Of a DNA stretch of 64,000 nucleotides, positions 5,372 to 23,069 are shown one piece after another. Source of the DNA: Caballeronia sp. SBC1 (GTDB lineage Bacteria; Pseudomonadota; Gammaproteobacteria; Burkholderiales; Burkholderiaceae); contig NZ_CP049158.1 of NCBI RefSeq assembly GCF_011493005.1, positions 1,240,001-1,304,000 of the forward strand. Direction: 5' to 3'. Positions within the stretch are counted from its first letter, which is position 1. Every line of letters starts with the position of its first letter. The position numbers were made by a program, and so were the translations under genes. The notes below the pieces were generated by a model. The model was not told the DNA's origin, did no database searches, and saw nothing but the letters and a program-made list of their open reading frames with translations.

Positions 5372-6982
5372 TTAAGCCGCGCCCGCTACCATGGAAGCCG
5401 CAAGCAGCGCCTGCGTATACGGATGCGCAGGCGCTTGCAAAACATCCATAGTGTCGCCCGTTTCCACAATCCGCCCGGCTTTCATGACCGCTACCCTGTG
5501 CGCCATCGCGCGCATCACGGCAAGATCGTGCGTGATGAACAGATAGGTCAGGCCGTATTTTTTCTGCAGCCGAGTGAGCAGGTTGAGCACCTGCTGCTGT
5601 ATCGATACATCGAGCGCGCTCGTGGGTTCATCCAGCACAAGCAGTTCCGGCTCGACCGCCAGCGCCCGGGCAATGGCTATACGTTGGCGCTGGCCACCGG
5701 AAAATTCTTGAGGGTACCGGGGCAAAACATCGGCCGGCATGCCGACTTCCTGGAGCAGCGCCACCACGCGTTGGCGACGCGCCGCCACCGTCACTTCCGG
5801 CCGGTGCAACGCAATCCCTTCGCCCACGATCTGTTCGATCGTCATGCGCGGTGACAACGATCCGTAGGGGTCCTGAAATACCACCTGCAGCCGCGACGAC
5901 ACCATCCGCCTCGAGTTCATGCTCTTGAGTGCGGACAAGGGCTGCCCGTCGATATGAATCAACCCTTCCGACGGCCTTTGCAGCCCCAGGATAGCGGCGG
6001 CGAGCGTGGACTTTCCCGATCCGGATTCGCCGACTATGCCAAGCGTTTCGCCGCACCTTAATGTGATGCCGACGTCTTGCAAAGCACGGAACGAAGACTT
6101 CGAAAACGCCGAGCGCCAGCCTTTCACCGAAGTCCGGTAGTCCACCGACAGTCCCTGCACTTCGAGCACCCGCCGCGCGTCCGAATCGATTGGATCGATC
6201 GCGCGTTCGGGCTCGCTATTGAGAAGACGACGGGTGTACGGATGCTGCGGATTCGCGAACAGTTCCGCGGTCGAATTGGTTTCTACCAGCACGCCATTTT
6301 CCATCACCGCCACACGCTGTGCGAAACGCTTGACCAGGTTCAAGTCGTGCGTGATCAGCAGCACCGCCATGCCGCGCTCGGCCGCTTCCTGCTCCTGCAA
6401 ACCGATCAGCAATTCCACGATCTGCTGGCGCACGGTCACATCAAGGGCCGTCGTCGGTTCATCGGCGAGCAGCAAGCGCGGGCGGCACGCGAGCGCCATC
6501 GCGATCATCGCGCGTTGCCGCTGGCCACCCGACAGTTGATGCGGGAAGCTGTCAATACGCCGTTCCGGTTCGGGGATACCGGTACGCCGCAACAACTCAA
6601 TACCGCGCTGACGTGCCGCGTTAGGACGCAAACCTTCGTGCAGACGCAGGCTTTCTGCGATCTGCTTGCCGATGGTGAACAACGGGTTGAGCGCGGTCAT
6701 CGGCTCCTGGAAGACCATGGCAACGTCGCGGCCGCGAATGCCGCGCATCTGTTGCTCTGTCTTGTGCAGGAGATCGTCACCGTCCAGCAGGATGCGCCCC
6801 GTCTGGCGAGCGTTGTCCGCCAGGCCCAGAATGGATAACGCCGTGACGCTCTTGCCCGATCCAGATTCGCCCACCAGCGCCACGCGTTCGCCACGCCCGA
6901 TAGAAAGATTCAGGTCCCGTACGACAGTCTTGTCGCCGAAGCCAATCGATAAACCGTCGAGTTGCAATAGAGGGGTGGTCAC
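5372..6982 (-). CDS. yejF: Peptide ABC transporter ATPase, fused double cassette (YejF-type)
   Basis: ATPase subunit of a YejABEF-type oligopeptide importer on the cytoplasmic face of the inner membrane. Two complete cassettes lie in one chain: Walker A GESGSGKS twice, signature LSGGQRQR and FSGGQRQR, and Walker B LLADEPTTALD and LVLDEPTSALD. The frame is open 100 codons further upstream, inside yejE, but the real start is the GTG at 6982, which overlaps the yejE stop by four bases (GTGA). That gives 536 residues, close to the known YejF length. It is the last gene of the oppA-like/yejABEF run. Confidence 0.92.
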   Translation of the reverse strand: MTTPLLQLDGLSIGFGDKTVVRDLNLSIGRGERVALVGESGSGKSVTALSILGLADNARQTGRILLDGDDLLHKTEQQMRGIRGRDVAMVFQEPMTALNPLFTIGKQIAESLRLHEGLRPNAARQRGIELLRRTGIPEPERRIDSFPHQLSGGQRQRAMIAMALACRPRLLLADEPTTALDVTVRQQIVELLIGLQEQEAAERGMAVLLITHDLNLVKRFAQRVAVMENGVLVETNSTAELFANPQHPYTRRLLNSEPERAIDPIDSDARRVLEVQGLSVDYRTSVKGWRSAFSKSSFRALQDVGITLRCGETLGIVGESGSGKSTLAAAILGLQRPSEGLIHIDGQPLSALKSMNSRRMVSSRLQVVFQDPYGSLSPRMTIEQIVGEGIALHRPEVTVAARRQRVVALLQEVGMPADVLPRYPQEFSGGQRQRIAIARALAVEPELLVLDEPTSALDVSIQQQVLNLLTRLQKKYGLTYLFITHDLAVMRAMAHRVAVMKAGRIVETGDTMDVLQAPAHPYTQALLAASMVAGAA

Positions 6983-8079
6983 TTCCGTGCCCCTCCGAAT
7001 GCGGAACCGCGCGTGCGGGTATCGAGCGCGTTGCGTAACGCGTCGCCCATGAAGGTCAGCAGCAGCAAGGTGACGACAAGGCCACCGAACGCCGCGCCGG
7101 AGATCCACCATGCATCGAGATTGTTTTTTCCTTCGGCTAGCAACTCGCCCAGGCTCGGCGTGGGGGCTGGCACGCCAAGTCCGAGAAAGTCGAGGCTGGT
7201 CAGCGCGAGAATCGCCGCGCTCATGCGAAACGGCAGGAAGGTGATCACCGGAGTCAGACTGTTGGGCAACACATGACGCCACATGATCTGCCAGTTCGAC
7301 AAACCCATGGTGCGAGCCGCGCGAACGTAGTCAAGCGAACGGTTGCGCAGGAATTCGGCGCGCACGTAGTCCGACAACGTGAGCCATCCGAACGCCGAGA
7401 GCAGGATGAACAGCAGCCACAAGGTCGGCTCGAAAATGGACGCGAAGATGATCAGCAGATACAGGTCGGGCATCGAACTCCAGATCTCTATCAGGCGCTG
7501 GCCGATCAAGTCGGTGCGACCACCGTAGAACCCCTGCACTGCGCCCGTCAGGACGCCCAGCAAGACGCCCGAGACCGTGAGTGCCAGTGCCATGAGCACA
7601 GAGAGCCGGAAACCGTACAGCAGGCGCGAAAACACGTCGCGGCCGAACTGGTCCGTCCCGATCCAGTTGGCGGCCGAAGGCGGCGCGGGATTGGGCGTGG
7701 TCGCGAAATAGTCGACGGTGTCGTAGTGAAAATGATTCGGCGGATAGATCGCAAAGTTACCCTTCGATTCCAGCCGGTCGCGAATGTACGGGTCGAGATA
7801 GTTCGCCCGTGCCGGGAAATCGCCGCCGAATACTTTCTCCGAATAGTCCTTCACGATCGGGAAATAGTAGTGCCCTTCGTAGCGGATCAACAGCGGTTTG
7901 TCGTTCGCCAGCACTTCGCCCAGCAGGCTGATGACGAACAACGCCACGAACACAATCGTGCTCCAGTAGCCCAGCCGCTGCGCCTTGAAACGCAACCATA
8001 CGCGCCGGCCCGGTGAATCGGACGGCGGCAAGATAGTGGCCGCAGGGCCCCCCATGACCGGATTCACGGAGACGTTCAT
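6979..8079 (-). CDS. yejE: Peptide ABC transporter permease (YejE-type)
   Basis: Inner-membrane permease of the YejABEF importer, 366 residues. It has an N-terminal membrane segment (WSTIVFVALFVISLLGEVL), a long periplasmic stretch with YYFPIVKDYSEK and DPYIRDRLESKG typical of YejE, then the usual five-helix permease core with the EAA-type cytoplasmic loop around RAARTMGLSNWQIMWRHVLP. The ATG at 8079, four bases after the yejB stop and preceded by GGTGAGAG, is preferred over the longer frame that starts inside yejB. It overlaps yejF by four bases, so the two are translationally coupled. Confidence 0.92.
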   Translation of the reverse strand: MNVSVNPVMGGPAATILPPSDSPGRRVWLRFKAQRLGYWSTIVFVALFVISLLGEVLANDKPLLIRYEGHYYFPIVKDYSEKVFGGDFPARANYLDPYIRDRLESKGNFAIYPPNHFHYDTVDYFATTPNPAPPSAANWIGTDQFGRDVFSRLLYGFRLSVLMALALTVSGVLLGVLTGAVQGFYGGRTDLIGQRLIEIWSSMPDLYLLIIFASIFEPTLWLLFILLSAFGWLTLSDYVRAEFLRNRSLDYVRAARTMGLSNWQIMWRHVLPNSLTPVITFLPFRMSAAILALTSLDFLGLGVPAPTPSLGELLAEGKNNLDAWWISGAAFGGLVVTLLLLTFMGDALRNALDTRTRGSAFGGARK

Positions 8080-8083
8080 GCTC

Positions 8084-9130
8084 TCACCGGTCCAGCCGGT
8101 CGAACTGGATACGGGGGTCGACGAGGACATAACAGACGTCCGCAATAAGCTTGGTCACAAGACCAATCAGGGTGAACAGGTAAAGCGAACCGAGCACGAC
8201 GGGATAGTCGCGCCGGATCACCGAGTCATAGGAAAGCTGGCCCATGCCATCGAGCGAAAACAATGTCTCGATCAGCAGGTTGCCATTGAGGAACGCGCCC
8301 ACGAACGCCGCTGGCAGCCCCGTCAGCAGCGGAATCATCGCGTTACGCAGCACGTGCTTCCAGAGCACGTCACGTTGCGGCGCGCCTTTTGCGCGTGCGG
8401 TCAGCACGTATTGCCGGCTGATCTCTTCGAGGAACGTGTTCTTCGTCAGGATGGTGACGATCGCAAAGTTGCCGACCACCGAAGCCGTCACCGGCAACGC
8501 GATATGCCACAAATAATCGAGTACCTTGCCCGCCATGCTGAGTTGGTCGAAGTCATCGGAGGTGAGGCCGCGCATGGGGAACACCTGCCACAACGTACCG
8601 CCACCGAACAACATCAGCAGCAGCACGCCCAGCACGAAACCGGGAATGGCGTAGCCGGTCAGCACGAGCACGCTCGTGGCGGTATCGAAGCGAGAGCCGT
8701 TTCGCACGGCCTTCGAAATCCCCAGCGGCACGGCAATGAGATAGGTCAGCAGCACGGTCCAGAGTCCCAGCGTGATTGACACTGGCAACTTCGAACGGAT
8801 CACTGCCCAGACGCTCTGATGCTGGTAATACGACTGACCGAGATTGAAACTCACGTAGTTCCTGAGCATGCTCACGTAGCGCACGAGCGGCGGCTTGTCG
8901 AAGCCGAATTCCTTCTTGAGTTGCTCGACCTGCTGCGGGTCCACCCCCTGGCTGCCGTGATATCCACCGGCCCCGCCCGCCTCGCCGTGGCTGCCGCCGT
9001 GGCGCATCTGGATCAGGATCTGCTCTACCGGGCCACCCGGTACGAACTGCGTCACGACAAAAGTCAGCGTAAGCACACCGATCAGCGTGGGGATCATCAG
9101 CAACATGCGTCTGAGAATATAAGCGGCCAT
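8084..9130 (-). CDS. yejB: Peptide ABC transporter permease (YejB-type)
   Basis: Second inner-membrane permease of the importer, 348 residues. The N-terminus AAYILRRMLLMIPTLIGV is the conserved first helix of DppB/YejB permeases. After it comes a His/Gly-rich loop (RHGGSHGEAGGAGGYHG, about residues 43-59) in the place where YejB proteins carry an insertion. The coupling loop TARAKGAPQRDVLWKHVLRN is clear. I choose the ATG at 9130, seven bases after the yejA stop, instead of the upstream start inside yejA. Confidence 0.92.
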   Translation of the reverse strand: MAAYILRRMLLMIPTLIGVLTLTFVVTQFVPGGPVEQILIQMRHGGSHGEAGGAGGYHGSQGVDPQQVEQLKKEFGFDKPPLVRYVSMLRNYVSFNLGQSYYQHQSVWAVIRSKLPVSITLGLWTVLLTYLIAVPLGISKAVRNGSRFDTATSVLVLTGYAIPGFVLGVLLLMLFGGGTLWQVFPMRGLTSDDFDQLSMAGKVLDYLWHIALPVTASVVGNFAIVTILTKNTFLEEISRQYVLTARAKGAPQRDVLWKHVLRNAMIPLLTGLPAAFVGAFLNGNLLIETLFSLDGMGQLSYDSVIRRDYPVVLGSLYLFTLIGLVTKLIADVCYVLVDPRIQFDRLDR

Positions 9131-9137
9131 GGCAATC

Positions 9138-10973
9138 TCAGTGTGTTGAAGCAACGGGGGCGGACACGGGCGCCTTCACGAACCAGTAGTCGACCAGCCA
9201 GTCCTCCGCAAGATACGAAAGCGGCGAGACCGGAGGAAAACCCATTCGTGCCCGATACCCCACGCGCGCGCTCGGCGAGTAGTACTCCGGAACGATGTAA
9301 TACCCATTGATCAGGATGCGATCGAGCGCGCGCGTGGCGGTCTCGAGATCGCTTAGTGTCTGCGCTTTCAATGCGGCCTCGATCATCGCGTCGGCAGCTT
9401 TCGAACGGACCCCCGGAAAATTCTCCGAGCCCGGCTGCGACGCCGCCGCGCTGCCGAAGCGGCGCGTCAGTTCGCCGCCCGGAATGGTGACCGGTGTGTA
9501 GATATACGTGGTCATGTCGAAGTCGAACGCGTCCATGCGCTTCTCGTACAACGCGCTGTCGAGTTCCCGCAGGTGTGCCTGCACGCCGAGCGTCTGCAAT
9601 TGCTGGATGTACGGCAGGATGACCCCGTCCATGCCGGGCTGGTCGTCCATGATCTCGATGGTCATTGGCGTTCCGCTCGCGTTGCGCAGCGCACCGTCAC
9701 GATACTGCCAGCCCGCTTCGTTCAGGAGCGCCTGGGCTTCGCGCAAATTGGCACGCAACGAATGCGGCGGCACCGTGTCAGGCTGCTTCAGCATCGGGCC
9801 GAACACGGCAGCTGGAAGCGTCGAGCGATACGGTTCGAGCAGCTTCAACTCTTTTGCATCCGGCACGCCCTGCGCACCAAACGGGGAGTCCTGGAAGTAA
9901 CTTCCCGTGCGGCGATACAGACCGTGGAACGCCAGCCGGTTCAACCAGTCGTAGTCGAAAGCGAGCGTCAGCGCGCGGCGCACGCGAGCGTCCGAGAACA
10001 GCGGCTTGCGGGTATTGAAAATCATGCCCTGCATCTGCGCCGGGCCATCGGGGAACTCGCCTTTCTTGAGCGACCCGTTGCTGAAGTTCTTGCCAATGTA
10101 CTTGCGCGCCCAGGTCGATGATGAATACTCCACGCGCATATCCGTGTGGCCCGCCTTGAAATCTTCCAGCGACGTGTAGTGATCCGTGAAGAGCCGGAAC
10201 GTGATGCGCTGGAAGCGATACATGCCGCGTCGCGACGGCAAATCGGCCGCCCAGTAATCCGGGTTGCGCCTGTAGGTGATCTCCTTGTCGTTCTTGCGTT
10301 GCTCGATCAGGTAAGGACCGCTTGCCACCGGCGGCACATCCGATATCTGATCAAACGGCGGTCGCATGCCGTCCGCTTTCATGCCCCACTTCGGTGAGAA
10401 CACCGGCAAATCCCCGGCGATCAGCGGCGCATCGCGGCGCGCTTCCTTGAAATCGAAGCGCACGGTCAGGCGATCGAACACGGCCGCGCGGCTGATATTG
10501 GCGAACTGCGAGTTGTAGATCGGCGAGACCTGATGGCTCGCCAACGTGTCGTAGGAGTACTTCACGTCAGCGGCGGTGATCGGGTCGCCATTGGAAAAAC
10601 GCGCCTTGGGATTGATATGAAACGTGGCCGACTTGCCGTCCGGGGCAACCTCAACATCGTCCGCAATCAATGGATACTCCGACGCCAGTTCATCCCAGCT
10701 TCGCTGCATCAGCGTGTCGAACATCAGGTTCTTCAGGTCGGGCGCCGGGGCGCCCCGGACCAGGAAGGGATTCATCGAATCGTAGCTTTGCAGTTCATCG
10801 TAGTTCTGGAAATTCATGTCGCCGTTTGTGGGCGCGTCCGCGTCCGCATAGTCGAAGTGCGTGAAGTCCGCCGGATATTTCGGCTCGTCGTATTGCGCGA
10901 TCGACGGTCGGGCGAACGCGTGCGATGCAAGGAGCAGTGCGGCAAACCCCAGCGCGATGCAGCTTTTATTCAT
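9138..10973 (-). CDS. yejA: Peptide ABC transporter substrate-binding protein (YejA-type)
   Basis: Periplasmic solute-binding protein of SBP family 5 (cluster C), 611 residues. It has a cleavable signal peptide (MNKSCIALGFAALLLASHAFA) followed by the YejA-like start with PKYPADFTHFDYADADAP. Family hallmarks are SYDSMNPF near residue 63 and VASGPYLIEQ near residue 217. YejA homologues with YejBEF import peptides, including the peptide-nucleotide microcin C in E. coli. It is 170 bases downstream of a second binding protein gene in the same direction. Confidence 0.9.
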   Translation of the reverse strand: MNKSCIALGFAALLLASHAFARPSIAQYDEPKYPADFTHFDYADADAPTNGDMNFQNYDELQSYDSMNPFLVRGAPAPDLKNLMFDTLMQRSWDELASEYPLIADDVEVAPDGKSATFHINPKARFSNGDPITAADVKYSYDTLASHQVSPIYNSQFANISRAAVFDRLTVRFDFKEARRDAPLIAGDLPVFSPKWGMKADGMRPPFDQISDVPPVASGPYLIEQRKNDKEITYRRNPDYWAADLPSRRGMYRFQRITFRLFTDHYTSLEDFKAGHTDMRVEYSSSTWARKYIGKNFSNGSLKKGEFPDGPAQMQGMIFNTRKPLFSDARVRRALTLAFDYDWLNRLAFHGLYRRTGSYFQDSPFGAQGVPDAKELKLLEPYRSTLPAAVFGPMLKQPDTVPPHSLRANLREAQALLNEAGWQYRDGALRNASGTPMTIEIMDDQPGMDGVILPYIQQLQTLGVQAHLRELDSALYEKRMDAFDFDMTTYIYTPVTIPGGELTRRFGSAAASQPGSENFPGVRSKAADAMIEAALKAQTLSDLETATRALDRILINGYYIVPEYYSPSARVGYRARMGFPPVSPLSYLAEDWLVDYWFVKAPVSAPVASTH

Positions 10974-11143
10974 CGTCGCCCCGATGTTCCCAATGTGCCC
11001 GCGCCCACAGCACGCCTGTCAGGGGATGATGCGGTTCGTTCATGTCAAAGCCTGATGATTGAAACGGGCGTGTGCGTCCGGATGAAAACGCGGTGCCGGA
11101 TTATCGCCGTGCTCATCTCGAGTGGCCGGCCCAAACGCGGCGC

Positions 11144-12784: not shown

Positions 12785-12872
12785 CTGGAAACTCCTGGTA
12801 TTCATGACTTCCGCGCTCGGCTTTGATCTGCCACGAACACGGGTCCCCGATACTGCGTATCGCCAAAACCAA

Positions 12873-12910
12873 GGTCGCTCCAGCGCCGCATGACACGCGC
12901 CGGAGCGACC
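12873..12910 (-). terminator. Rho-independent terminator after the TonB-dependent receptor
   Basis: Inverted repeat GGTCGCTCC-A-GCGC with matching right arm GCGC-C-GGAGCGACC. Read on the minus strand it is followed by TTGGTTTT. It lies about 30 bases after the receptor stop, so receptor mRNA probably ends here and the oppA-like gene needs its own promoter or read-through. Confidence 0.75.
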
Positions 12911-12940
12911 GTTCCATCAGACAAACAAACTACAGCGGCA

Positions 12941-15688
12941 TCAGAACTTGTACGTTGCGCCGACCTGCGCGAAGCGGCCAATGTTCGTGTATATCGACTG
13001 GTCGTAGCCCGTCTGATCCAGCGTGCCATTTGCAAAGATCGGATCGTACGGCGGCGCACGGTTGAAGATGTTGTCGATGCCGCCGAAGATCGTCCAGTGC
13101 TTGAAGCCCGTGTACGTCATCATCAGGTTGAACTGGCTGTACGATCCCACTCGGGATGGCCCGGCCGCATCCAGATTCTGCGCATACGGACCTGTGAACT
13201 GCCAGGTCAACGCTGCGTCAAACTTGTTGTACGTCCAGTCCGCGGTGGTGTTGCCTTTCCAGCGCGGGAAGCTGCCGCCGAACGGCTGTGTGAGCGTGTA
13301 GTCGTTACCCGCACCATTCACCGGCGCCTGACCCGGGGAGCCGAGCTTGAAGCTGTTCACGTAAGCCCAGTCAGCGGACAACGTGAACGTCCCGACCTTC
13401 GTCGGCAGTGCCTGGCGGAACGTGCCTTCGAAACCGTTCGTATCAAGATAACCGAGGTTCTGGTACGGAATGACCTTGTACAGGAGTTCGCCCGTTACCG
13501 GGTCGGTGACAACCTGCGAAGGCGAGCCTTGGCCGATTACGTTGTCCACACGAATCTTGTACCAGTCCAGGCCGATATCGGTCGTACGGGTGGGCGACAA
13601 CTGGAAGCCGATGCTGAGGTTACGCGTGCGCTCGGCTTTCAGGGCCGGATTACCCTCCGTGATCGACGTGTAGTTCTGGCCGGTGGCCTGGTCGACCTGA
13701 ATACCCATCGTTTGCGAGTTGCTGTTCTCAACGAACGTCGGCGCGCGGAAGCCGCGGTTATACGACGTGTACATCGTGAGCGCCTGAACCGGTTGATAGC
13801 GCAATGCAAAACGCGGCGAGAACGCACCACCTACATCGCTGTAGTGGTCGTAACGGCCCGACTGGCTGAATGTCAGGGCGCGCACAATCGGAATGTCCAC
13901 CTGGTAGTACACGGCGGCCACGTTGCGCTGGCCGTTCACCGTCTGCAGATTCGGGCTGATGACCTCGCCCTCTTCGAACGCCGAACCCGGGTTCATCACT
14001 TCGCTCTGGTGCGTGAACTGTGCACCGAAGCCAAGACCCACATCGCCCGCCGGCAGATGGAAGAGGTCTGGCGTCGACAGCGTTGCGTCAACTGTATCCA
14101 GCTTCGAGATAGCCAGATTGTTCGCGTCCATGTACAGCCCGTTGGTCCCGTTCGGCGTAGCCGCAGGATTCGCGAAGTCGAAAGTCCCGTTCTGGTAAAT
14201 ATTGGTTAGTACGTTGGTGTTGAGCTGGTTCGTATAGGTGTTCGAGACCGTGCTTTGCGAGTGACTGACCGAGCTCGCCCAATCCCATTCGCCGTTCGGC
14301 AAGTTAAACGAGCCCTTGATGCCCGTCGACACGCGCCAGTAGGTGGAATACGTGTTTTCCGCCACCGCGTTCGGGAACGCATACGTGAGCGGCGTGGCGA
14401 CACCGAACGGGTTGTACGGATTACTCGCCGGCACAGTGAAATTGAACGGCGAAAGCAGCTTGGTCTGCGGGTTCCACACGAGTGCGGGGACCTGCGGATT
14501 GCCAATAACGTTGTTCCACAGACCGTCGTTGGTGGTGGTCGTGTTGCTGCTGATCAGGAAATCCCCGAACGCCGTCGTCGTATCATTGATCTTGAAGTCA
14601 GCGTGAATCTTCGCATTCGCACGCTCGGTCATCGGGGCGATAGACGTGCTTTCCGCGCTGTTGAAGCCGCAGATCGTGCCCGCCGATCCAGCCGTCAGCG
14701 AGTTGGTGGCGGCGGGATGCACCGAACCGCCGTTCGCACATCCGCTCAATGCCTGCACGCTGCCGTCGGGCATGCTCCAGTAAGACGGTGCAAGCAACGA
14801 AAGGCCGCCCGTCTGATTGGTGAAATCCTGACCGCTCGTCGCGTCGCGGTCTGCGAGCGTGAAGCCGTTCGACTTGTAGTAGCTCGCGGCGGCCGTCACG
14901 TTGAAGCGGTCCGCGTTGAGATCGCCAAAGCCGCCGAGCACGCCGAATTTGGTCGTGCCCGCGCCGCCGCCCTGGCTGATGGCGCTGCCGTAGCTGCCGT
15001 CGAGTTGCAGCCCCTGGAAGTCGTGCTTCGTGATGATGTTGACCACGCCCGCGATGGCGTCCGAGCCGTATTGCGACACGGCGCCGGTCTTCACGATTTC
15101 GATGCGGTCGATGTCGTTCAACGGCAGCGTGTTCAGGTCGAAGAAGGAGTCGACGCTGTTCGAAAAGAACGCGAATGGCGCAACGCGCTGTCCATCCACC
15201 AATACAAGCGTGTACTTTTCGCTGAGACCGCGTAGAGCAATACCCGCCGCGCCTGCGGCAAAGTTGCCGGACTGGCCTTCGCCCCAGCTATTCGCAGAAT
15301 TGGCTGAGGTCGTCCGCAGATAATCGGCGACGGTCGTGGCGCCGCTCTGCACAATGTCTTTCTGCGTAACCGTCTGAACCGCGTTGAAGCCGACCTTGTC
15401 GGCGCTGCGGATCAGTGACCCGGTCACTTCGAATTTCTTGATTTGCTGGACGCCCTTTTCAGCAGTCGGTGTCGCAGTGTTGTTGTCCGCGGACGGTGCT
15501 GCAACAACGCCAGATGCCGGCGCCGCCGCTGCTGCCGCCGGCGTACTTTCCGTTGTCGTTGCGCCTGCGGCCGTACCAGTGGTGGCTGGCTGGCTCTGCG
15601 CAAACGCCGGTACGGCGATTGCGGCTGACAACGCTAATTCAGCCCAGACTATTCTTTTGATGGCCAGCGCCAATGCCCGTTGTTTCAT
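12941..15688 (-). CDS. TonB-dependent outer-membrane receptor
   Basis: Outer-membrane gated barrel that takes up a ligand using TonB energy; ligand unknown. It has 915 residues: signal peptide (1-30), an Ala/Thr/Pro-rich linker (about 31-78), a TonB-box/plug start at KKFEVTGSLIRSADKVG (84-100), plug segments such as TLVLVDGQRVAP and DRIEIVKTGAVSQYGSDAIA, then the barrel, ending in the phenylalanine (TYKF) expected of outer-membrane proteins. The large size and linker resemble receptors common in Xanthomonadaceae, which take up peptides or carbohydrates rather than classic siderophores. The surrounding peptide transporter genes favour a peptide-like ligand, but that is inference. Confidence 0.9.
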   Translation of the reverse strand: MKQRALALAIKRIVWAELALSAAIAVPAFAQSQPATTGTAAGATTTESTPAAAAAAPASGVVAAPSADNNTATPTAEKGVQQIKKFEVTGSLIRSADKVGFNAVQTVTQKDIVQSGATTVADYLRTTSANSANSWGEGQSGNFAAGAAGIALRGLSEKYTLVLVDGQRVAPFAFFSNSVDSFFDLNTLPLNDIDRIEIVKTGAVSQYGSDAIAGVVNIITKHDFQGLQLDGSYGSAISQGGGAGTTKFGVLGGFGDLNADRFNVTAAASYYKSNGFTLADRDATSGQDFTNQTGGLSLLAPSYWSMPDGSVQALSGCANGGSVHPAATNSLTAGSAGTICGFNSAESTSIAPMTERANAKIHADFKINDTTTAFGDFLISSNTTTTNDGLWNNVIGNPQVPALVWNPQTKLLSPFNFTVPASNPYNPFGVATPLTYAFPNAVAENTYSTYWRVSTGIKGSFNLPNGEWDWASSVSHSQSTVSNTYTNQLNTNVLTNIYQNGTFDFANPAATPNGTNGLYMDANNLAISKLDTVDATLSTPDLFHLPAGDVGLGFGAQFTHQSEVMNPGSAFEEGEVISPNLQTVNGQRNVAAVYYQVDIPIVRALTFSQSGRYDHYSDVGGAFSPRFALRYQPVQALTMYTSYNRGFRAPTFVENSNSQTMGIQVDQATGQNYTSITEGNPALKAERTRNLSIGFQLSPTRTTDIGLDWYKIRVDNVIGQGSPSQVVTDPVTGELLYKVIPYQNLGYLDTNGFEGTFRQALPTKVGTFTLSADWAYVNSFKLGSPGQAPVNGAGNDYTLTQPFGGSFPRWKGNTTADWTYNKFDAALTWQFTGPYAQNLDAAGPSRVGSYSQFNLMMTYTGFKHWTIFGGIDNIFNRAPPYDPIFANGTLDQTGYDQSIYTNIGRFAQVGATYKF

Positions 15689-16061
15689 TTTTCCCCTTCT
15701 CGCTCGTCAGTAAGGCCACAGCTGTGTGTGAAGAGAGGTCTTGTGGACCTCTCCACTCGATATACGGCGTGCTTGCGCCGCGCTCCGTTAAAGCTGACCC
15801 GCGCTTCTACTGCCTGGCAACGGGTCAATAGCGCACCAAATTGCAAATGCAGACAGAAGACGGGACACTTCATATACTTTAATATCGGACTACTTATTTA
15901 TTACAAACGACATGCGCAGCGCTTTCTAATTGTTTTAACTTCGACTACTTTGCATGATGGATCGGACAACGTCTCTCCATCAAAACAACCTTCAATCAAA
16001 ACTTTAGCAATACTTACGAATACAGAACGGGTGCTTTCAAAAAATTACGGAGCAAAGCCAC
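15689..16061. other. Intergenic region upstream of the TonB-dependent receptor
   Basis: A 373-base gap between the receptor start and the stop of the XRE-cupin regulator, both on the minus strand. The stretch 15870-16060 is AT-rich and is the likely receptor promoter. I found no copy of the TATAC-centred palindrome seen upstream of the regulator, and no convincing Fur box. Confidence 0.4.
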
Positions 16062-16637
16062 CTAGAACAATCTTGGCGTGCCCACCCATACAACCGCCGC
16101 TTCTTCGCGAGCGGTGTTGCACCAGGCGTGAGGCACGGTGGACTCGAAATGGGCGGTGTCACCAGCCTGCAATACGAACGTTGTACCTTCTAACGTGAGC
16201 GATATCTGGCCGCTCATTACGTACAAGAACTCTTCCCCTGCATGCGTCGTGACTTCCGATGGGTTCTGTCCCACCGGCATCCTGACGAGAATTGCTTCCA
16301 GCTGGCCGCCGACCGACAAATTCGTCAGCCGTCCAAAAAGATTCGCGGTTCCGTCGAAGCCGAAGTACTTCAGCTCACTCTTTCTACGCACTGACTTGTC
16401 TTCAGTCGGCGTGTCGACGAAGTACTGAACCGTGACGCCTAGCGAGCGCGCAATACCAACGAGCGATGTGATAGAGGGCGTTGCCTGACCTCGTTCGACT
16501 TGCGATAAAAATGGCTTCGAAATCCCCGCACTTGTCGCCACTTCATCCAGCGTGCGCTTGAGCCGCTGGCGAAGCGACCGGATTTTTATTCCTATGGAAA
16601 CTGCGATCTGTGCCTTGTTATCGAGTGGCAAAACCAT
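16062..16637 (-). CDS. XRE-family regulator with C-terminal cupin domain
   Basis: A two-domain repressor/activator of 191 residues. An N-terminal Cro/C1-type helix-turn-helix (about residues 16-70, with RLKRTLDEVATSAGISKPF and LSQVERGQATPSITSL) is followed by a cupin sensor domain (about 110-188, with HAGEEFLYVMSGQ and GDTAHFESTVPHAW). Members of this architecture often sense small metabolites. The frame opens 40 codons further upstream, but that part would read through the palindrome at 16665-16683, so I prefer the ATG at 16637. It sits between the receptor and the TonB operon, all in one direction, and is the obvious candidate regulator for both. Confidence 0.8.
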   Translation of the reverse strand: MVLPLDNKAQIAVSIGIKIRSLRQRLKRTLDEVATSAGISKPFLSQVERGQATPSITSLVGIARSLGVTVQYFVDTPTEDKSVRRKSELKYFGFDGTANLFGRLTNLSVGGQLEAILVRMPVGQNPSEVTTHAGEEFLYVMSGQISLTLEGTTFVLQAGDTAHFESTVPHAWCNTAREEAAVVWVGTPRLF

Positions 16638-16664
16638 AGCAAGACAGAATCCCGTAGTCAAAAT

Positions 16665-16683
16665 TAGTTTGTATACCAAACTA
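16665..16683. promoter_or_regulatory. Palindrome upstream of the XRE-cupin gene, candidate operator
   Basis: Perfect inverted repeat TAGTTTG-TATAC-CAAACTA, 28 bases upstream of the proposed start of the XRE-cupin gene. Position and symmetry fit an autoregulatory binding site. A second TATAC-centred inverted repeat lies 116 bases further on. Confidence 0.5.
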
Positions 16684-16798
16684 TGTTTTATTGGATGCGA
16701 CATCTTCCCTGAAACACGCGCCCTATGCCCGGTTAGTTGCCGCGATGCTTGGTTCAATCAATGCGATTGTCGGGACACTTTCGCACTTGTCTAAAACC

Positions 16799-16828
16799 GG
16801 GAGGTGGTTGCGTATACAACCACCTCCC
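16799..16828. terminator. 12-bp perfect inverted repeat centred on CGTATA, terminator and/or operator
   Basis: Arms GGGAGGTGGTTG and CAACCACCTCCC around a six-base centre CGTATA. Read on the minus strand it is followed by GGTTTTAG, about 110 bases after the stop of the TPR gene, so it may terminate the tonB operon. Its core TTGCGTATACAA also resembles the palindrome at 16665-16683 (TTGGTATACAA on the minus strand), so it may instead or also bind the XRE-cupin protein. The rest of 16638-16938 has no gene. Confidence 0.55.
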
Positions 16829-16938
16829 TCTACTGCCGAAGATCTGCGTTCCATGCGGCGAGCACGTACCGCCCGGCGCAATGCACACATAGCTTGGCGG
16901 CACTTCACAGGATGGGACATGTTGAAACCGGGATGCCG

Positions 16939-18144
16939 TTACTTCGACGCCACCATGACCCACAATCGGGCGAGGTCGGCCGAACCGTCGGTGCCTTTCA
17001 CCGCGTGAAAGGTTTGCACTGCGCGGGCTTTGTCGCCTGCCACGTAGTAGGCCACCCCGAGATGCAATTGCGCCTGGTCAGGGTGATCGAGCCCACCCTT
17101 CGCGATCGCCGCATCCATTGCGGCAAGACCCTGCTTGGTTTGCCCCGCGAAGACCTCGTTGAAACCGACGTCGACCGGTGCTACGGGGTTCGCCGGATCA
17201 GCCGGCGCTTGCGCCCGCTTCGCGGCTAGCGCCTGCAACCGCTTTTCGCGATCCGCCTGCGCATCGTGACCCAGAACGCCTGATGCGAATCCCTGATCGA
17301 TCACCTGCTTGCCCTCGGCCGTCGTACCCGAGACAATCGCGAGCTGGGTCATCTCCATGTAATCGTTGGCGGTGGTGAGCGAACCCGTCGCGCGACGCAG
17401 CCGATACGTGTCGATATCGAGCGCCGACGAATAGCCGGGCTTCGTACGAATCGATTGGAACAGATCGTCCCAGTAAGACTGCTTCGGGTAATGAGCGACC
17501 AATTTTTCCAGCGCGCCGCGGTACGTCGTGTCATCTTTCACACGCTGCGCGCACGTGCCGAGCAGTTGCAGCTGCGACTCGTCGGGCGCATGGCCGGCAC
17601 GCGCTTGCGCGTCGACCACGGGCTTGAGGAGGCTCACCACACTGCCGCAGTCGTTCGAAAGGTAGTAAGACTGGACGAGCAGAGTGCGCATATCGGGATC
17701 GCTGCCGCCTGACTTCTGATAGCGCTGCGCGACCTTGATAGCCTGTGCGTAGTTCTTTTGCTCGAAGTAGATGCCTGCAAGTGCCGCCGTGGTGCGTTGT
17801 TCGTCAGCGCCGGTTAGGCGCCCTGAACCGAGCAACGTTTCATAGGCCTGGGCGGCTACACCATTGTCGCCCGCCGCCGCAGCAGCAGCGCCGCGCATCT
17901 CTTCGACCATATAGCTTTCATACGGCGTCTTGCCCGGCACTGCAGCCGCCTGATCGATCTTCGTCAATGCATCCTTGTACTTGTGCGCGCGATACAGATC
18001 CTGCGCGGCGTTCAGCGGCTTCGCCACATCAGGGCGCAAGGTGTCTGCGGCATGAGACGTGACCGGCAGCACGGCGAGCGCGGACAGTCCTCCAATAGCG
18101 GCCGCAATGACGGCGCGTTTGAAGCGTTGATGGATCGTTAGCAT
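16939..18144 (-). CDS. Exported tetratricopeptide-like protein of the TonB operon
   Basis: A 401-residue protein with a signal peptide (leader ends near TSHAADT). After it come helical repeats of TPR type, for example AAQDLYRAHKYKDALTKIDQ (residues 46-65) and LAGIYFEQKNYAQAIKVAQR. It should be periplasmic. It is nine bases downstream of exbD2 with its own AAGGAAG ribosome binding site, so it belongs to the tonB-exbB-exbD-exbD operon. Role not known; TPR proteins usually scaffold, so an accessory to the motor or to the receptor is a reasonable guess. Confidence 0.78.
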   Translation of the reverse strand: MLTIHQRFKRAVIAAAIGGLSALAVLPVTSHAADTLRPDVAKPLNAAQDLYRAHKYKDALTKIDQAAAVPGKTPYESYMVEEMRGAAAAAAGDNGVAAQAYETLLGSGRLTGADEQRTTAALAGIYFEQKNYAQAIKVAQRYQKSGGSDPDMRTLLVQSYYLSNDCGSVVSLLKPVVDAQARAGHAPDESQLQLLGTCAQRVKDDTTYRGALEKLVAHYPKQSYWDDLFQSIRTKPGYSSALDIDTYRLRRATGSLTTANDYMEMTQLAIVSGTTAEGKQVIDQGFASGVLGHDAQADREKRLQALAAKRAQAPADPANPVAPVDVGFNEVFAGQTKQGLAAMDAAIAKGGLDHPDQAQLHLGVAYYVAGDKARAVQTFHAVKGTDGSADLARLWVMVASK

Positions 18145-18153
18145 TCCACTTCC

Positions 18154-18585
18154 TTATTGCATGTACTGCTCATTGCCGATCAAACCGATTTTCGTTGCGC
18201 CCAGTCGTTGAGCGGACGCCATCACCGCCGCGACATCCTTATACGGCACCAGCTTGTTGGGCCGCAGATGGATTTCCGCCTGCACCGGTTCGGCAGCCAC
18301 CTGTGCGAGCCTGGAGTCGAGCGCCGCACGGTCGGGCACCGGCTGGCCGTTCCAGGTCGTGGTGCCGTCGAAGTCGATATCGATCTGCACCACTTCAGGC
18401 TGCGTGATCGGCGGCGGCGGATTGCCGATCGGCAAGTTCATCTTGATGGCGTGCGTCTGGATCGGGATCGTGATGATCAGCATGATCAGCAACACCAGCA
18501 TCACGTCGATCAGCGGCGTGGTGTTGATATCGACCATCACATCCGGTTCAGCGTTGCCGCCGCCCGACGATACGTTCATTCCCAT
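18154..18585 (-). CDS. exbD: ExbD/TolR family biopolymer transporter, second copy
   Basis: A 143-residue inner-membrane protein with one N-terminal transmembrane helix and a periplasmic domain. The helix holds the proton-path aspartate in INTTPLIDVMLVLLIMLI (Asp near residue 27). The start has a good GGAG ribosome binding site. It is the second of two exbD genes in this operon and is separated from the first by 247 bases filled with hairpin repeats. The two ExbD proteins differ clearly in the periplasmic part, so this is not a fresh duplication. Confidence 0.9.
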   Translation of the reverse strand: MGMNVSSGGGNAEPDVMVDINTTPLIDVMLVLLIMLIITIPIQTHAIKMNLPIGNPPPPITQPEVVQIDIDFDGTTTWNGQPVPDRAALDSRLAQVAAEPVQAEIHLRPNKLVPYKDVAAVMASAQRLGATKIGLIGNEQYMQ

Positions 18586-18599
18586 GGTCTTCTCCTGTG

Positions 18600-18832
18600 T
18601 CGATCGGAGTTGGCGCTTTAGCGCCTTACTCCGATCCCATGCAAAGCTCGATCGGAGTTGGCGCTTCAGCGCCTTACTCCGATCCCATGCAAAGCTCGAT
18701 CGGAGTTGGCGCTTTAGCGCTTAGTCCGGTCCCATGCAAAGCTCGATCGGAGTTGGCGCTTCAGCGCTTAGTCCGGTCCCATGCAAGGCTCGATCGGAGT
18801 TGGCGCAGCGCTTACTCCGGTCCTATGCACAG
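18600..18832. repeat. Five tandem 43-48-bp hairpin repeats between the two exbD genes
   Basis: Five head-to-tail units start at about 18600, 18648, 18696, 18743 and 18790. Each begins TCGATCGGAGTTGGCGC and ends in ATGCAAAGC or a close variant. Units 1 and 2 are 48 bp, 3 and 4 are 47 bp, and 5 is shorter. Each unit holds an inverted repeat, CGGAGT-t-GGCGC with right arm GCGCC-tt-ACTCCG, so the mRNA can fold into a row of stem-loops. Differences between copies partly keep the stems paired. They lie inside an operon and could act as an mRNA stability or partial-termination element. Confidence 0.92.
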
Positions 18833-19255
18833 CTAGCCGCCGCGCGCAGGCGGCTCCGTGATAAACGAAACCTTGGCAATACCGGCGCGTTCGCACTCGG
18901 TAATGACCCGGCCGATGAATTCATAACGCGCGCTCTGGTCGCCACGAACGTGCACTTCCGGTTGCGGCGTCATGACCGACACGGTTTTCAGGCGTGCCAG
19001 CAGCGTCGGTCCATCCACCTGCTTCTCGTTCCAGAAGAAATCGCCGTCGCGGTTGACCGCAATGACGATACTTTTGGGTGTGGTCTGCAAAGGCTGGATG
19101 GTCTCCTTCGGCAGTTGCAACGGGATCGTATGCGTCACAACCGGAATCGTGATCAGAAAGATGATCAGCAGGACCAGCATCACATCGACGAGCGGTGTGG
19201 TGTTGATACTGGAGATGACCTCGTCGTCATCATCGTGCCCAACGCTCATAGCCAT
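18833..19255 (-). CDS. exbD: ExbD/TolR family biopolymer transporter, first copy
   Basis: A 140-residue ExbD with an acidic N-terminus (GHDDDDEVISS), one transmembrane helix with the conserved aspartate in INTTPLVDVMLVLLIIFLI, and a short periplasmic domain. It forms the proton-driven motor with ExbB. GGAG precedes the start at suitable spacing, and the gene is 12 bases after exbB. Its stop codon touches the end of the hairpin repeat cluster. Confidence 0.9.
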   Translation of the reverse strand: MAMSVGHDDDDEVISSINTTPLVDVMLVLLIIFLITIPVVTHTIPLQLPKETIQPLQTTPKSIVIAVNRDGDFFWNEKQVDGPTLLARLKTVSVMTPQPEVHVRGDQSARYEFIGRVITECERAGIAKVSFITEPPARGG

Positions 19256-19267
19256 GACGAACTCCGC

Positions 19268-20182
19268 TTATTGGGCCAACGCTGCTTCACGGGCCGTAGC
19301 GCGCACCGAGCGCCGGCTGCCGGCGAGCAGGACGGTGTGCAGTTGTGCGCCGAACGCACGAACACGCTCCATCACCGACTTGTTGCGGCGAACCAGGAAG
19401 TTGTAGCCGAGCACAGCCGGCACAGCCACGGCGAGACCGATCGCGGTCATGATCAACGCTTCACCCACCGGGCCCGCGACCTTGTCGATCGAAGCCTGGC
19501 CGGCAATACCGATTGCCGTCAGCGCGTGATAGATCCCCCACACGGTACCGAACAGACCGACGAACGGCGCAGTCGAGCCAACCGTGCCTAGGAAAGCCAG
19601 ACCGTCCTGCAGACGATTCGACACGTTGGTGATGGCACGCTCGACCGAGGTGTCGATCCACGTGTTGCGGTCGACGGCTTCGAGCAGTGCTTCGTTGTGG
19701 TGTTCGCCTGCCTCGATGGCTGTTTCGGCGATGAAGCGGAACGGCGAAGCCTCGTCGAGCATCTTTGCGCCTTCTACCAGCGACGGCGCGGTCCACAACT
19801 GCTCGTCGGCACTCTTCGCACGACGGTTGGCACGGAACTGCTCGAAGAACTTGGTGATCATGATGTACCAGCTGCCCATCGACATGAGGACCAGCAGAAT
19901 CAGCACGAAGCGTGCAACAAAGTCACCGTTCTTCCAGAGCGCGCCCAGCCCGTATGGGTTGTTGACGGTTTCCGACGTGGCCGGTGCGGGCGGCGGCACC
20001 GCTTCGTCTGTGGCCGAGCCGGCCGTTTGTGGTGCTGCCGTGGTGGCGGTGGCAGTGGCGGACGCGGACGCGGACGCGTCGCTAGCTTGCGCGTGGGCCA
20101 TGTGTGGTGCCACAAAGGTATCCACCGTGGTTACGGCGAACAACAGGGTTGCCGCCAATGCGGCGAGAGTACGCTTTTTCAT
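19268..20182 (-). CDS. exbB: ExbB/TolQ/MotA proton-channel protein
   Basis: Inner-membrane motor subunit of 304 residues, longer than E. coli ExbB because of an N-terminal signal-like segment (MKKRTLAALAATLLFAVTTV, ending near AHAQ) and an Ala/Thr/Ser/Pro-rich linker to about residue 72. Transmembrane segments are at about 85-108, with a conserved pair near LAFLGTVGSTAPFVGLFGTV and MTAIGLAVAVPAVLGYNFLV. The extended periplasmic N-terminus is known from some proteobacterial ExbB proteins. GGAGCAGGC precedes the ATG. Confidence 0.92.
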   Translation of the reverse strand: MKKRTLAALAATLLFAVTTVDTFVAPHMAHAQASDASASASATATATTAAPQTAGSATDEAVPPPAPATSETVNNPYGLGALWKNGDFVARFVLILLVLMSMGSWYIMITKFFEQFRANRRAKSADEQLWTAPSLVEGAKMLDEASPFRFIAETAIEAGEHHNEALLEAVDRNTWIDTSVERAITNVSNRLQDGLAFLGTVGSTAPFVGLFGTVWGIYHALTAIGIAGQASIDKVAGPVGEALIMTAIGLAVAVPAVLGYNFLVRRNKSVMERVRAFGAQLHTVLLAGSRRSVRATAREAALAQ

Positions 20183-20258
20183 GCCTGCTCCAAGTTCATT
20201 AGTACAACTTCTAAACGAAGACTGATAAATCGCTGCCGGTACCGAACAGCCTGTGGGT

Positions 20259-20969
20259 TCAGTTCAGGTTAAACGAGAAAGGAACTTGCACACGGACAGG
20301 TTGGCCTTGGGAAACGCACGTGAACTGCTTGACCGCGTTGAACGCAGCGCGATCGAGTGAGGAATCTTCCGCAGACTTGGCAACGCGTTCATTCGTAATA
20401 TGGCCCTGCGGGTCGACTACGAATTCAATCAGCACATCACCCGTCACGTTGTTTTCCTGCGCTTCCTTCGGGTAGCGGATCGACGAACGGATCTGATCTG
20501 AGTTCGGGCATACAACCCCTACTTCAGTGCTCACGGGCTTGGCTTGCACGGGAGGGGCCGGCGGTGCGGGGGGCGCCACGGCGGGTGCCGATACAACCGG
20601 CGCGGCCTGGTGCGTGATCGTGGGCTGGGGCGGAGTTTGCACCTGCACTTCCGGCGGCGGCACGAACGGCGGCGGCGGCGGTGCGAACTTCGGCGGCGGC
20701 AATTGCACGGTGGGCAACGGCGGAGGCGGCGGCGGCTTAACCGGCTCGATGATTTTCGTTTCAATAGGATGCTGGATGACCTGTACCACCTTGGTGGCAA
20801 GGCCGTTGATCAGTGCATAGATCAACACGATGTGCAGGAGCAGAACAACTGCGATCCCGCCGAAGCGGCGCACAGGGTTTTGCTGCTTGCGCCCAAACTC
20901 GCGTGGGCGTCCTGGCCTCCCCATACGGGCCGTTGCTGCCGGAAATTGCCCTTCGACTTTAGTACCCAC
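20259..20969 (-). CDS. tonB: TonB energy transducer
   Basis: Links the ExbB-ExbD motor to outer-membrane receptors. In 236 residues it has a cytoplasmic basic N-terminus, one transmembrane helix (FGGIAVVLLLHIVLIYALI), a Pro-rich periplasm-spanning segment (runs of PPPPPP) and a C-terminal TonB domain (SSIRYPKEAQENNVTGDVLI to the end). The start is taken as the GTG at 20969, because GGAGGAG lies five bases upstream; the frame is open a further 20 codons. It is the first gene of the tonB-exbB-exbD-exbD-TPR run, with a 76-base gap to exbB. Confidence 0.9.
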   Translation of the reverse strand: MGTKVEGQFPAATARMGRPGRPREFGRKQQNPVRRFGGIAVVLLLHIVLIYALINGLATKVVQVIQHPIETKIIEPVKPPPPPPLPTVQLPPPKFAPPPPPFVPPPEVQVQTPPQPTITHQAAPVVSAPAVAPPAPPAPPVQAKPVSTEVGVVCPNSDQIRSSIRYPKEAQENNVTGDVLIEFVVDPQGHITNERVAKSAEDSSLDRAAFNAVKQFTCVSQGQPVRVQVPFSFNLN

Positions 20970-21219
20970 CTTTACTCCTCCGGCGTGAATCGTCCATTTC
21001 TGTAACTGCAGTGCGCTGACATAGGGCAACCAACGTTCGCTTCGGACAACCGCATCCGGCGCTCCGCCCCTTGATTTGCACTCCGAATTGATACTTCAGC
21101 GCGTAAACCCTGATGCAATGACGCGGTGCGGCTGTGAGATGCCCTAGCAGTATTTCAAACCCGCCGAATGATCATTTAAGAACAACCCCGACAGATTGAT
21201 TCGGCTTGTTTGCTTCGGT

Positions 21220-22992: not shown

Positions 22993-23069
22993 ATTAATTG
23001 CACTATTCTTATACGAACGATCCGGCCGCATCACAAGCCGGCGTCGACACCTGCCCCGAGGGGTTCGGC

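What the first reader, a model, noticed from the sequence alone, without database searches (positions are those of the whole stretch)
5372..20969. A self-contained outer-to-inner membrane import locus: receptor, binding proteins, Yej transporter, private TonB motor and regulator
On one strand and in one block the sequence shows a TonB-dependent receptor, an OppA-type binding protein, YejABEF, an XRE-cupin regulator and a tonB-exbB-exbD-exbD-TPR operon. Every step from outer membrane to cytoplasm is present with its own energy system. YejABEF is known for peptide and microcin C uptake, usually with porin entry and no dedicated receptor. The combination suggests active uptake of a large or rare peptide-like compound, such as a peptide antibiotic, xenosiderophore or signalling peptide. 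I do not know a described system with exactly this layout.
Basis: partly seen in the sequence, partly recalled or inferred. Interest (0 to 1): 0.72.

Follow-up and report, generated by a model that had tools for sequence, protein, structure and literature searches.

The report
Bacterial peptide import locus with own motor
A soil bacterium carries, side by side, every part needed to pull a peptide-like molecule through both its membranes, and relatives keep this set together, often adding genes that look able to cut up, tag and pump out what comes in, so it may be a way to take in and deal with peptide antibiotics of competitors.

Summary
Twelve minus-strand genes (window 5372-21029) encode TonB-ExbB-ExbD-ExbD-TPR, an XRE-cupin regulator, a TonB-dependent receptor, an OppA-like binding protein and YejABEF. 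The genome also has other YejABEF and ExbB genes. In the window's genus the Yej genes largely follow the host tree, but receptor and motor differ as a block: one form has a Paraburkholderia-type receptor and motor, the other an unrelated receptor and motor, mostly at one site. So motor, receptor and Yej are probably one functional unit. Outside Caballeronia, 33 of 41 module loci run on into a TldD-like protease, mostly with TldE and GNAT acetyltransferases, and an AcrB-type pump where the sequence reaches, resembling microcin-C handling. Best reading: TonB-driven import of a peptide natural product; in relatives it is then cleaved, acetylated and something pumped out. Ligand unknown; no Fur box or shared operator found; receptor-plus-peptide-ABC precedents exist (SppR-SppABCD).

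The parts
20259..21029 (-). tonB (256 aa)
   Evidence: PF03544 E 1e-16; 91-97% identical copies in 13 Paraburkholderia-type module loci and 95-97% in Caballeronia
19268..20182 (-). exbB (304 aa)
   Evidence: PF01618 E 1e-32; 95-97% copies in the class I genomes; the next best in its own genome is 44%
18833..19255 (-). exbD1 (140 aa)
   Evidence: PF02472 E 8e-28
18154..18585 (-). exbD2 (143 aa)
   Evidence: PF02472 E 2e-24
16939..18144 (-). TPR protein (401 aa), probably periplasmic, last gene of the motor run
   Evidence: PF13432 TPR_16; present in 43 of 48 module loci
16062..16757 (-). XRE-cupin regulator (ORF 231 aa; true start probably internal, about 190-200 aa)
   Evidence: PF01381+PF07883; 39 of 48 module loci; PuuR model best but under its cut-off
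12941..15688 (-). TonB-dependent receptor (915 aa)
   Evidence: PF07715+PF00593; no NCBIfam ligand-specific model over its cut-off; fold nearest to PirA, PfeA, FepA and BtuB at 14-17% identity
11144..12805 (-). OppA-like oligopeptide-binding protein (553 aa); in the module only in the window's genus so far
   Evidence: PF00496; nearest solved: 3zs6 oligopeptide-binding protein, E 5e-170; 81% paralogue elsewhere in the genome; 7 of 48 module loci, all Caballeronia-type
9138..10973 (-). yejA-type binding protein (611 aa)
   Evidence: PF00496; nearest solved 4ony, 7z8e, YejA, MbnE
8084..9154 (-). yejB permease (356 aa)
   Evidence: NF011712 427 bits (cut-off 445)
6979..8145 (-). yejE permease (ORF 388 aa)
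   Evidence: NF011596 389 bits (cut-off 439)
5372..7282 (-). yejF double ATPase (ORF 636 aa; homology begins near residue 102, likely start near 6982)
   Evidence: two ABC_tran stretches; NF011713 621 bits over residues 102-629 (cut-off 834)

Best explanation
The locus is one functional import system. The receptor binds a peptide or peptide-like natural product at the cell surface; the linked TonB-ExbB-ExbD1-ExbD2 motor drives it through the outer membrane; YejA and, in Caballeronia, the recruited OppA capture it in the periplasm; YejBEF carries it into the cytoplasm. In the fuller Paraburkholderia/Burkholderia form the cargo is then probably cut by the TldD/TldE-like pair, its products N-acetylated by the GNATs, and something harmful exported by the AcrB-type pump. 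The window's form lacks that tail and would rely on general peptidases. Shown here: gene content, conservation, shared strand, and that receptor and motor differ as a block between two forms that share Yej. Inferred: physical coupling of this motor to this receptor, peptide cargo, the order of processing, and that the cargo is harmful.
For: Gene content. Within 58 same-genus genomes (the window's included) the receptor occurs in 13, and the special YejA (78% identity or more) in the same 13, in the same neighbourhood. Of 65 loci fetched with the receptor, 48 have the module's YejB; of these, motor in 42, TPR in 43, XRE-cupin in 39. Order varies but the set stays: 3 Trinickia loci have the receptor before tonB, and L129 has the motor converging from the far end. 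Block difference: the receptor tree puts class I inside Paraburkholderia (22 rows, 100*) and class II apart (99*), whereas the Yej tree unites class I and II (100*; mean identity 86.9% against 76.8% to Paraburkholderia-type modules). Towards 13 Paraburkholderia-type loci the class I motor is 90-98% and the receptor 80-88% identical but YejA only 69-73%. Class II has a different tonB-exbB-exbD; 4 of 5 class II loci checked share downstream neighbours with class I. Peptide cargo: OppA and YejA relatives; TldD begins a median of 32 bp after the yejF match in 33 of 48 loci, followed by TldE, GNAT and AcrB-type genes.
Against: No ligand is known, and the receptor's fold matches siderophore and B12 receptors (model mean pLDDT only 68). 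No operator is shared between the motor and receptor upstream regions. 17 of 65 loci lack the module's YejB; 16 of these also lack its YejA and are receptors without the import module, one of them (L093) with a tonB-exbB copy beside it. Six module loci show no motor in the fetched stretch: at least two because the receptor or TPR gene lies at the end of the stretch or contig (L045, L088), one because it lies at the far side (L095/L129); L080, L086 and L090 are unresolved. C. udeis (L084/L031) has lost yejBEF while keeping receptor, motor and both binding proteins. TldD, TldE, the GNATs and the pump have no match in the window, and TldD none in its genome at E 1e-20. No tree of the motor was built; its kinship rests on identities.
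Confidence: 0.72

Rival explanations
1. Xenosiderophore or metallophore uptake: the receptor takes in a peptidic metal chelate, Yej imports it whole, and in relatives the GNAT, protease and pump release the metal and recycle the ligand.
For: Receptor fold nearest to PirA/PfeA/FepA; MbnE, a methanobactin-system protein, is among the nearest solved YejA relatives; SppR-SppABCD of P. aeruginosa is called a putative xenosiderophore transporter (title in reference lists).
Against: No Fur-like box: best 8-12 of 19 matches in 40-50 upstream stretches each for tonB, receptor, regulator and yejA, and shuffle level in the window (no positive control was run). No reductase or siderophore gene among the neighbours that I scanned. 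TldD/E proteases are not a known siderophore-release route (recalled).
Confidence: 0.17
2. Nutritional import of ordinary oligopeptides or cell-wall peptides from the surroundings.
For: OppA is an 81% paralogue of a second OppA in the genome; YejBEF-YepA imports muropeptides in Agrobacterium (abstract seen in listing); the Caballeronia form has no detoxifying tail.
Against: Small peptides are thought to pass porins without a TonB receptor (recalled); the pump and acetyltransferases in related operons point to harmful cargo.
Confidence: 0.18
3. Chance neighbourhood of a receptor, a motor and a transporter.
For: Probably several transcription units; no shared operator found.
Against: Kept in four genera and through permutations and block exchange.
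Confidence: 0.02

Closest known systems
SppR-SppABCD of Pseudomonas aeruginosa (Pletzer 2016; title only, seen in reference lists)
   Same: TonB-dependent receptor with a peptide-type ABC importer (layout recalled); called a putative xenosiderophore transporter
   Different: As far as I recall no own TonB-ExbBD motor, TldDE, GNAT or pump; sequence relation to the window not tested here
YejABEF / NppA1A2BCD peptide-antibiotic importers (passages of PMC10128002)
   Same: Same inner-membrane importer family; NppA1A2BCD by its name has two binding proteins; S. meliloti YejABEF and NppA1A2BCD import phazolicin, E. coli YejABEF microcin C (but not phazolicin in that paper's S. meliloti test)
   Different: No dedicated receptor or motor is known to me for them; in S. 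meliloti Tn-seq did not pinpoint an outer-membrane entry for phazolicin
Microcin C import, activation and immunity (passages of PMC9239234)
   Same: Yej import, cytoplasmic proteolysis (a cited title names TldD/E for the Yersinia compound), GNAT acetylation (MccE2), an exporter (MccC)
   Different: Here no biosynthesis genes were searched for, the pump is AcrB-type not MFS, and outer-membrane entry is by a TBDT; the processing genes are in relatives, not in the window
Methanobactin uptake, MbnT and MbnE (abstract of PMC9601215 in listing; MbnE structure hit)
   Same: TBDT and (recalled) a YejA-family binding protein for a modified peptide
   Different: Copper-chelator system; MbnE is only one of several comparable relatives of this YejA
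YejBEF-YepA muropeptide importer (abstract of PMC9790009 in listing)
   Same: Same permease family with an alternative binding protein
   Different: Recycles wall fragments; no outer-membrane step in the part of the abstract that I saw
Lasso-peptide isopeptidase loci with TBDT and GNAT (recalled; the listing gave no direct description)
   Same: Surface receptor plus peptidase plus acetyltransferase
   Different: Different protease family, no Yej operon or own motor (recalled)

Membership tests
YejABEF importer | Family 5 binding protein, two permeases, fused double ATPase in one run of genes | tested here: met
YejABEF importer | Passes the curated NCBIfam Yej cut-offs | tested here: not met
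   YejF 621/834, YejE 389/439, YejB 427/445 bits; best models but under cut-off. I therefore call it Yej-type, not a proven orthologue
YejABEF importer | Transports microcin C or other peptides | not testable with these tools
   Needs uptake assay
TonB-ExbB-ExbD motor | TonB C-terminal, ExbB channel and ExbD domains in one run of genes | tested here: met
   NCBIfam equivalog cut-offs not reached for ExbB and the two ExbD, TonB not scanned there
TonB-ExbB-ExbD motor | Energises this receptor rather than all receptors | tested here: inconclusive
   Only genetic linkage and block exchange
TonB-dependent receptor | Plug and barrel domains | tested here: met
   model
Siderophore receptor | Ligand-specific model over cut-off, or Fur-type regulation | tested here: not met
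   (consensus scan without positive control)
SppR-SppABCD type system | Receptor linked to peptide-type ABC importer | tested here: met
   Layout only; sequence relation to SppR not tested
Microcin C-like import and immunity | Yej import, TldD/E, GNAT and an exporter together | tested here: inconclusive
   Relatives: pump in 11 of 12 extended regions, GNAT missing in one of the 11; TldD, TldE, GNAT and pump not in the window
Microcin C-like import and immunity | MccA/MccB biosynthesis genes or a peptidyl-nucleotide ligand | not tested
   No search for MccB made
TldD/TldE protease pair (relatives only) | TldD with HExxxH, TldE without it, adjacent genes | tested here: met
   HESIGH in the 3 TldD read, none in the 3 TldE; TldE matches only the C-terminal Pfam domain; TldD is far under the NCBIfam TldD cut-offs
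PuuR (XRE-cupin) | Passes the PuuR equivalog cut-off | tested here: not met
   59.9 against 211 bits; HTH plus cupin architecture present

The most novel reading that the evidence does not exclude
The full form is a 'swallow, digest, disarm and expel' system for Trojan-horse peptides of competitors, possibly peptidyl-nucleotide or other tRNA-synthetase poisons: its own motor and receptor bring the peptide in, Yej delivers it, a TldD/E protease opens it, GNATs acetylate the warhead and an AcrB-type pump expels it. Receptors diversify and are exchanged as cassettes together with a matched motor. The extra arginyl-tRNA synthetase beside four paralogous receptors would be target protection in the same arms race. 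The window's Caballeronia form would be a derived version with a second, OppA-type, peptide catcher.
Probability: 0.25. Interest if true: 0.85.

Novelty: new variant of a known kind. Interest (0 to 1): 0.6.

Why it matters
Outer-membrane entry of peptide antibiotics that use Yej-type importers can be unknown (phazolicin in S. meliloti, PMC10128002); a conserved receptor plus motor plus Yej cluster makes that step testable in harmless environmental Paraburkholderia. The block exchange of receptor and motor suggests that TonB motors can be receptor-specific and inherited with them, which deletion can test. If the processing tail acts on a toxic peptide, it marks unexplored resistance or scavenging routes and possibly unknown peptide antibiotics.

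Tried and rejected
Chance arrangement: rejected by conservation. Iron control: Fur consensus scan negative, no positive control. A shared operator of the motor and receptor units: 9-mer sharing in 42 loci gave only scattered hits (best shared word in 6 of 42), and a 13-bp inverted repeat upstream of the window's tonB is only partly kept even in Caballeronia (best arm 10-12 of 13, second arm 8-10). The pump as a co-occurring partner in Caballeronia: a 70-73% homologue lies unlinked in 13 of 13 module-bearing genomes tested and, at that level, in 0 of 5 without (best 50%), but its neighbours include LPS-type and other unrelated genes and a housekeeping YejA tree shows the 13 are one clade, so this is not independent evidence. 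Structure of the receptor: modest model, generic TBDT matches, no ligand hint. Rfam: no family at gathering score in the window. A first housekeeping tree took the wrong strand for some rows and was discarded. Antisense ORFs clustered as 'conserved genes' were recognised as artefacts. Literature: all ten searches used; none listed a paper that from its listing describes this cluster, but subscription papers are mostly not held and only the top of long lists was shown.
Full report
1. What is there. The window lies on a 1.83-Mb contig (C3) of an 8.85-Mb, five-contig genome. Its receptor is 92-94% identical to proteins of Caballeronia records, so a Caballeronia host is likely (inference). On the minus strand, in reading order: tonB, exbB, exbD1, exbD2, TPR gene, XRE-cupin regulator, TonB-dependent receptor, OppA-like protein, yejA, yejB, yejE, yejF. 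NCBIfam's best models for the permeases and the ATPase are the microcin C/Yej ones, but under the curated cut-offs. YejA's nearest solved relatives are 4ony, 7z8e, YejA and MbnE; OppA's is an oligopeptide-binding protein, 3zs6.

2. It is extra. The genome has a second, 50% identical YejA with its own yejBEF on contig C1, two further ExbB-family genes at 42-44% identity (E 1e-40 or better), and an 81% OppA paralogue elsewhere on C3. The receptor has no second match in the genome at E 0.001.

3. Conservation in near relatives. Of 101 genomes (58 of the same genus, the window's included), 14 have the receptor at E 1e-100, 13 of them in the genus. The special YejA (78-100%) occurs in the same 13 and in the same neighbourhood, while a 50-53% housekeeping YejA occurs in most genus genomes. 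The receptors fall into class I (93-94%, 8 genomes) and class II (56-57%, 6 genomes; one genome has both). Class I loci carry the same 95-97% ExbB and motor genes (one class I copy, L032, is cut by its contig end before the motor). Class II loci (L033-L038) carry a different motor: a tonB-exbB-exbD set lies between oppA and the receptor in L033 and between yejA and the receptor in L038, the two loci whose domains I tested; further class II stretches have the same tonB and exbD. In 4 of 5 class II loci checked a second TonB-like gene lies between oppA and yejA. No XRE-cupin match was found in the class II loci.

4. Conservation further out. A scan of genome contigs with the receptor gave 66 loci, 65 of them real (L040-L104): Caballeronia, Paraburkholderia, Burkholderia, Trinickia, and one each in Dyella and Undibacterium. 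48 of 65 have the module's YejB; of these 48, YejA 48, YejE/F 47, tonB/exbB/exbD1/exbD2 42, TPR 43, XRE-cupin 39, OppA 7, TldD 33, TldE 32, pump 19. Flanks of 10 kb, and some contig ends, cut many loci before the later genes, so the last figures are lower bounds. The module genes found lie on one strand in the fetched stretches; the commonest order is that of the window without OppA; three Trinickia loci have the receptor before tonB; in L129, the extension of L095, the motor converges from the far end. Two loci (L061, L066) have two receptors in tandem. The 17 loci without YejB comprise C. udeis and 16 receptors without the module; the Dyella and Undibacterium receptors are among the latter.

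5. Receptor and motor move together. In the receptor tree (76 rows) the window and eight other rows of the OppA-bearing form are one clade (100*) inside Paraburkholderia receptors (11 rows 95*, 22 rows 100*), and class II is apart (99*). In the concatenated Yej tree (57 rows) class I and class II are one clade (100*), with class II L142 (G031) inside the class I group (100*); mean identity is 86.9% between the classes but 76.8% to the other modules. A housekeeping YejA tree of 20 genomes likewise puts G031 beside G008 among class I genomes and four class II genomes together. Against 13 Paraburkholderia-type loci the window's motor proteins are 90-98%, the TPR protein 87-92%, the regulator 85-94% and the receptor 80-88% identical, but YejA 69-73%, YejB 84-85%, YejE 81-83%, YejF 74-76%. 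Four of 5 class II loci checked have the SDR and 4159-type genes that also follow class I; the fifth, the second locus of G024, does not. Hence Yej stayed and the receptor plus motor half was most likely exchanged as a block. The direction rests on midpoint-rooted trees, and no motor tree was built. This is the strongest evidence that motor and receptor work together; it is evolutionary, not biochemical.

6. The tail in relatives. Of 41 module loci without OppA, 33 have TldD, starting a median of 32 bp after the yejF match, 32 TldE and 27 two GNATs; families, all far under NCBIfam cut-offs. The 8 without TldD are L056, L058, L059, L060, L072, L076, L086, L103. Twelve extended regions show an AcrB-type pump (PF00873 in the three tested) after these in 11; the twelfth, Undibacterium L127, instead has a Yej-like set (permeases 30-32%, ATPase 41% identical) directly before TldD (57%) and TldE (39%). 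Five loci have the pump directly after yejF. TldD carries HESIGH and TldE no such motif in the three pairs read. The window has no match to TldD, TldE, the GNATs or the pump at E 1e-5, and its genome none to TldD at E 1e-20. Seven other genomes of the genus, not among the receptor-bearing 13, have the TldD/E pair without module genes in about 20 kb.

7. How it most likely works. Shown: the parts and their linkage. Inferred from family knowledge: the receptor binds outside, this TonB motor opens it, YejA/OppA catch, YejBEF imports. Inferred with less certainty: peptide cargo (binding-protein relatives, TldD/E) and harmful cargo (pump, GNAT). The parallel with microcin C is close: YejABEF import, cytoplasmic proteolysis, GNAT (MccE2) acetylation and an exporter are described in PMC9239234 (passages read), and a title cited there and in PMC7136475 names TldD/E as the activator of the Yersinia compound inside producing cells (reference lists).

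8. What is known. A receptor linked to a peptide-type ABC importer is known as SppR-SppABCD (title in reference lists; layout recalled). YejABEF-type importers of peptide antibiotics are known (passages of PMC10128002), as is a muropeptide role of YejBEF-YepA (abstract in listing). I found no paper that describes the present cluster in the listings; subscription papers are mostly missing from that library.

9. Against this reading. 17 of 65 loci lack YejB; six module loci show no motor in the fetched stretch, three of them unexplained; no operator or Fur box was found; C. udeis lost yejBEF; the receptor model is of modest quality and says nothing about the ligand; the pump's co-occurrence in Caballeronia is confounded by ancestry.

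10. Verdict. Observation confirmed; interpretation largely supported and extended, ligand unknown; new variant of a known kind; interest 0.6.

Noticed in passing
window 18600-18834: Five copies of a 47-bp tandem repeat sit between exbD2 and exbD1; the same element occurs at other sites of the genome (12 matches to its core with up to one mismatch, 4 of them here).
   Followed up: partly
L054, L057, L074, L101: Receptor paralogues without the import module stand beside a chemoreceptor and an arginyl-tRNA synthetase gene that is extra to, and unlike, the housekeeping one in the three genomes searched (in L101's genome it is matched in two pieces); nearest solved relatives of the L057 copy are ordinary bacterial ArgRS.
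   Followed up: partly
L046-L053, L062, L063, L080, L083, L086, L089, L095 (upstream of tonB or of the XRE-cupin gene): A double-length UvrA gene (about 1970 aa in L086 and L095) lies next to the module in 15 of 48 loci.
   Followed up: no
L031 / L084 (Caballeronia udeis): yejBEF have no match and the yejA match is shortened, while receptor, motor and OppA remain.
   Followed up: no
L040, L045 (C. sordidicola PAMC 26633); L027, L032: Two near-identical copies of the locus on two contigs, both with yejB matched in two pieces.
   Followed up: no
L139 15882-16718 and equivalents in L140-L142: 4 of 5 class II loci checked carry a second TonB-like gene between oppA and yejA.
   Followed up: no
L127 1238-9937 (Undibacterium): A binding-protein-type gene and a Yej-like set directly followed by TldD-TldE, with no receptor match in the fetched stretch; a TonB C-terminal match lies at the stretch's edge.
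   Followed up: partly
L119, L122, L124, L130: An XRE-cupin gene (65-67% to the window's) lies just past the far end of the operon, on the opposite strand.
   Followed up: no
window 22998-24899: Uncharacterised zinc-ribbon, proline-rich protein divergent from tonB, without a Pfam match; a homologue lies beside the receptor in five class II loci, L033-L037.
   Followed up: no
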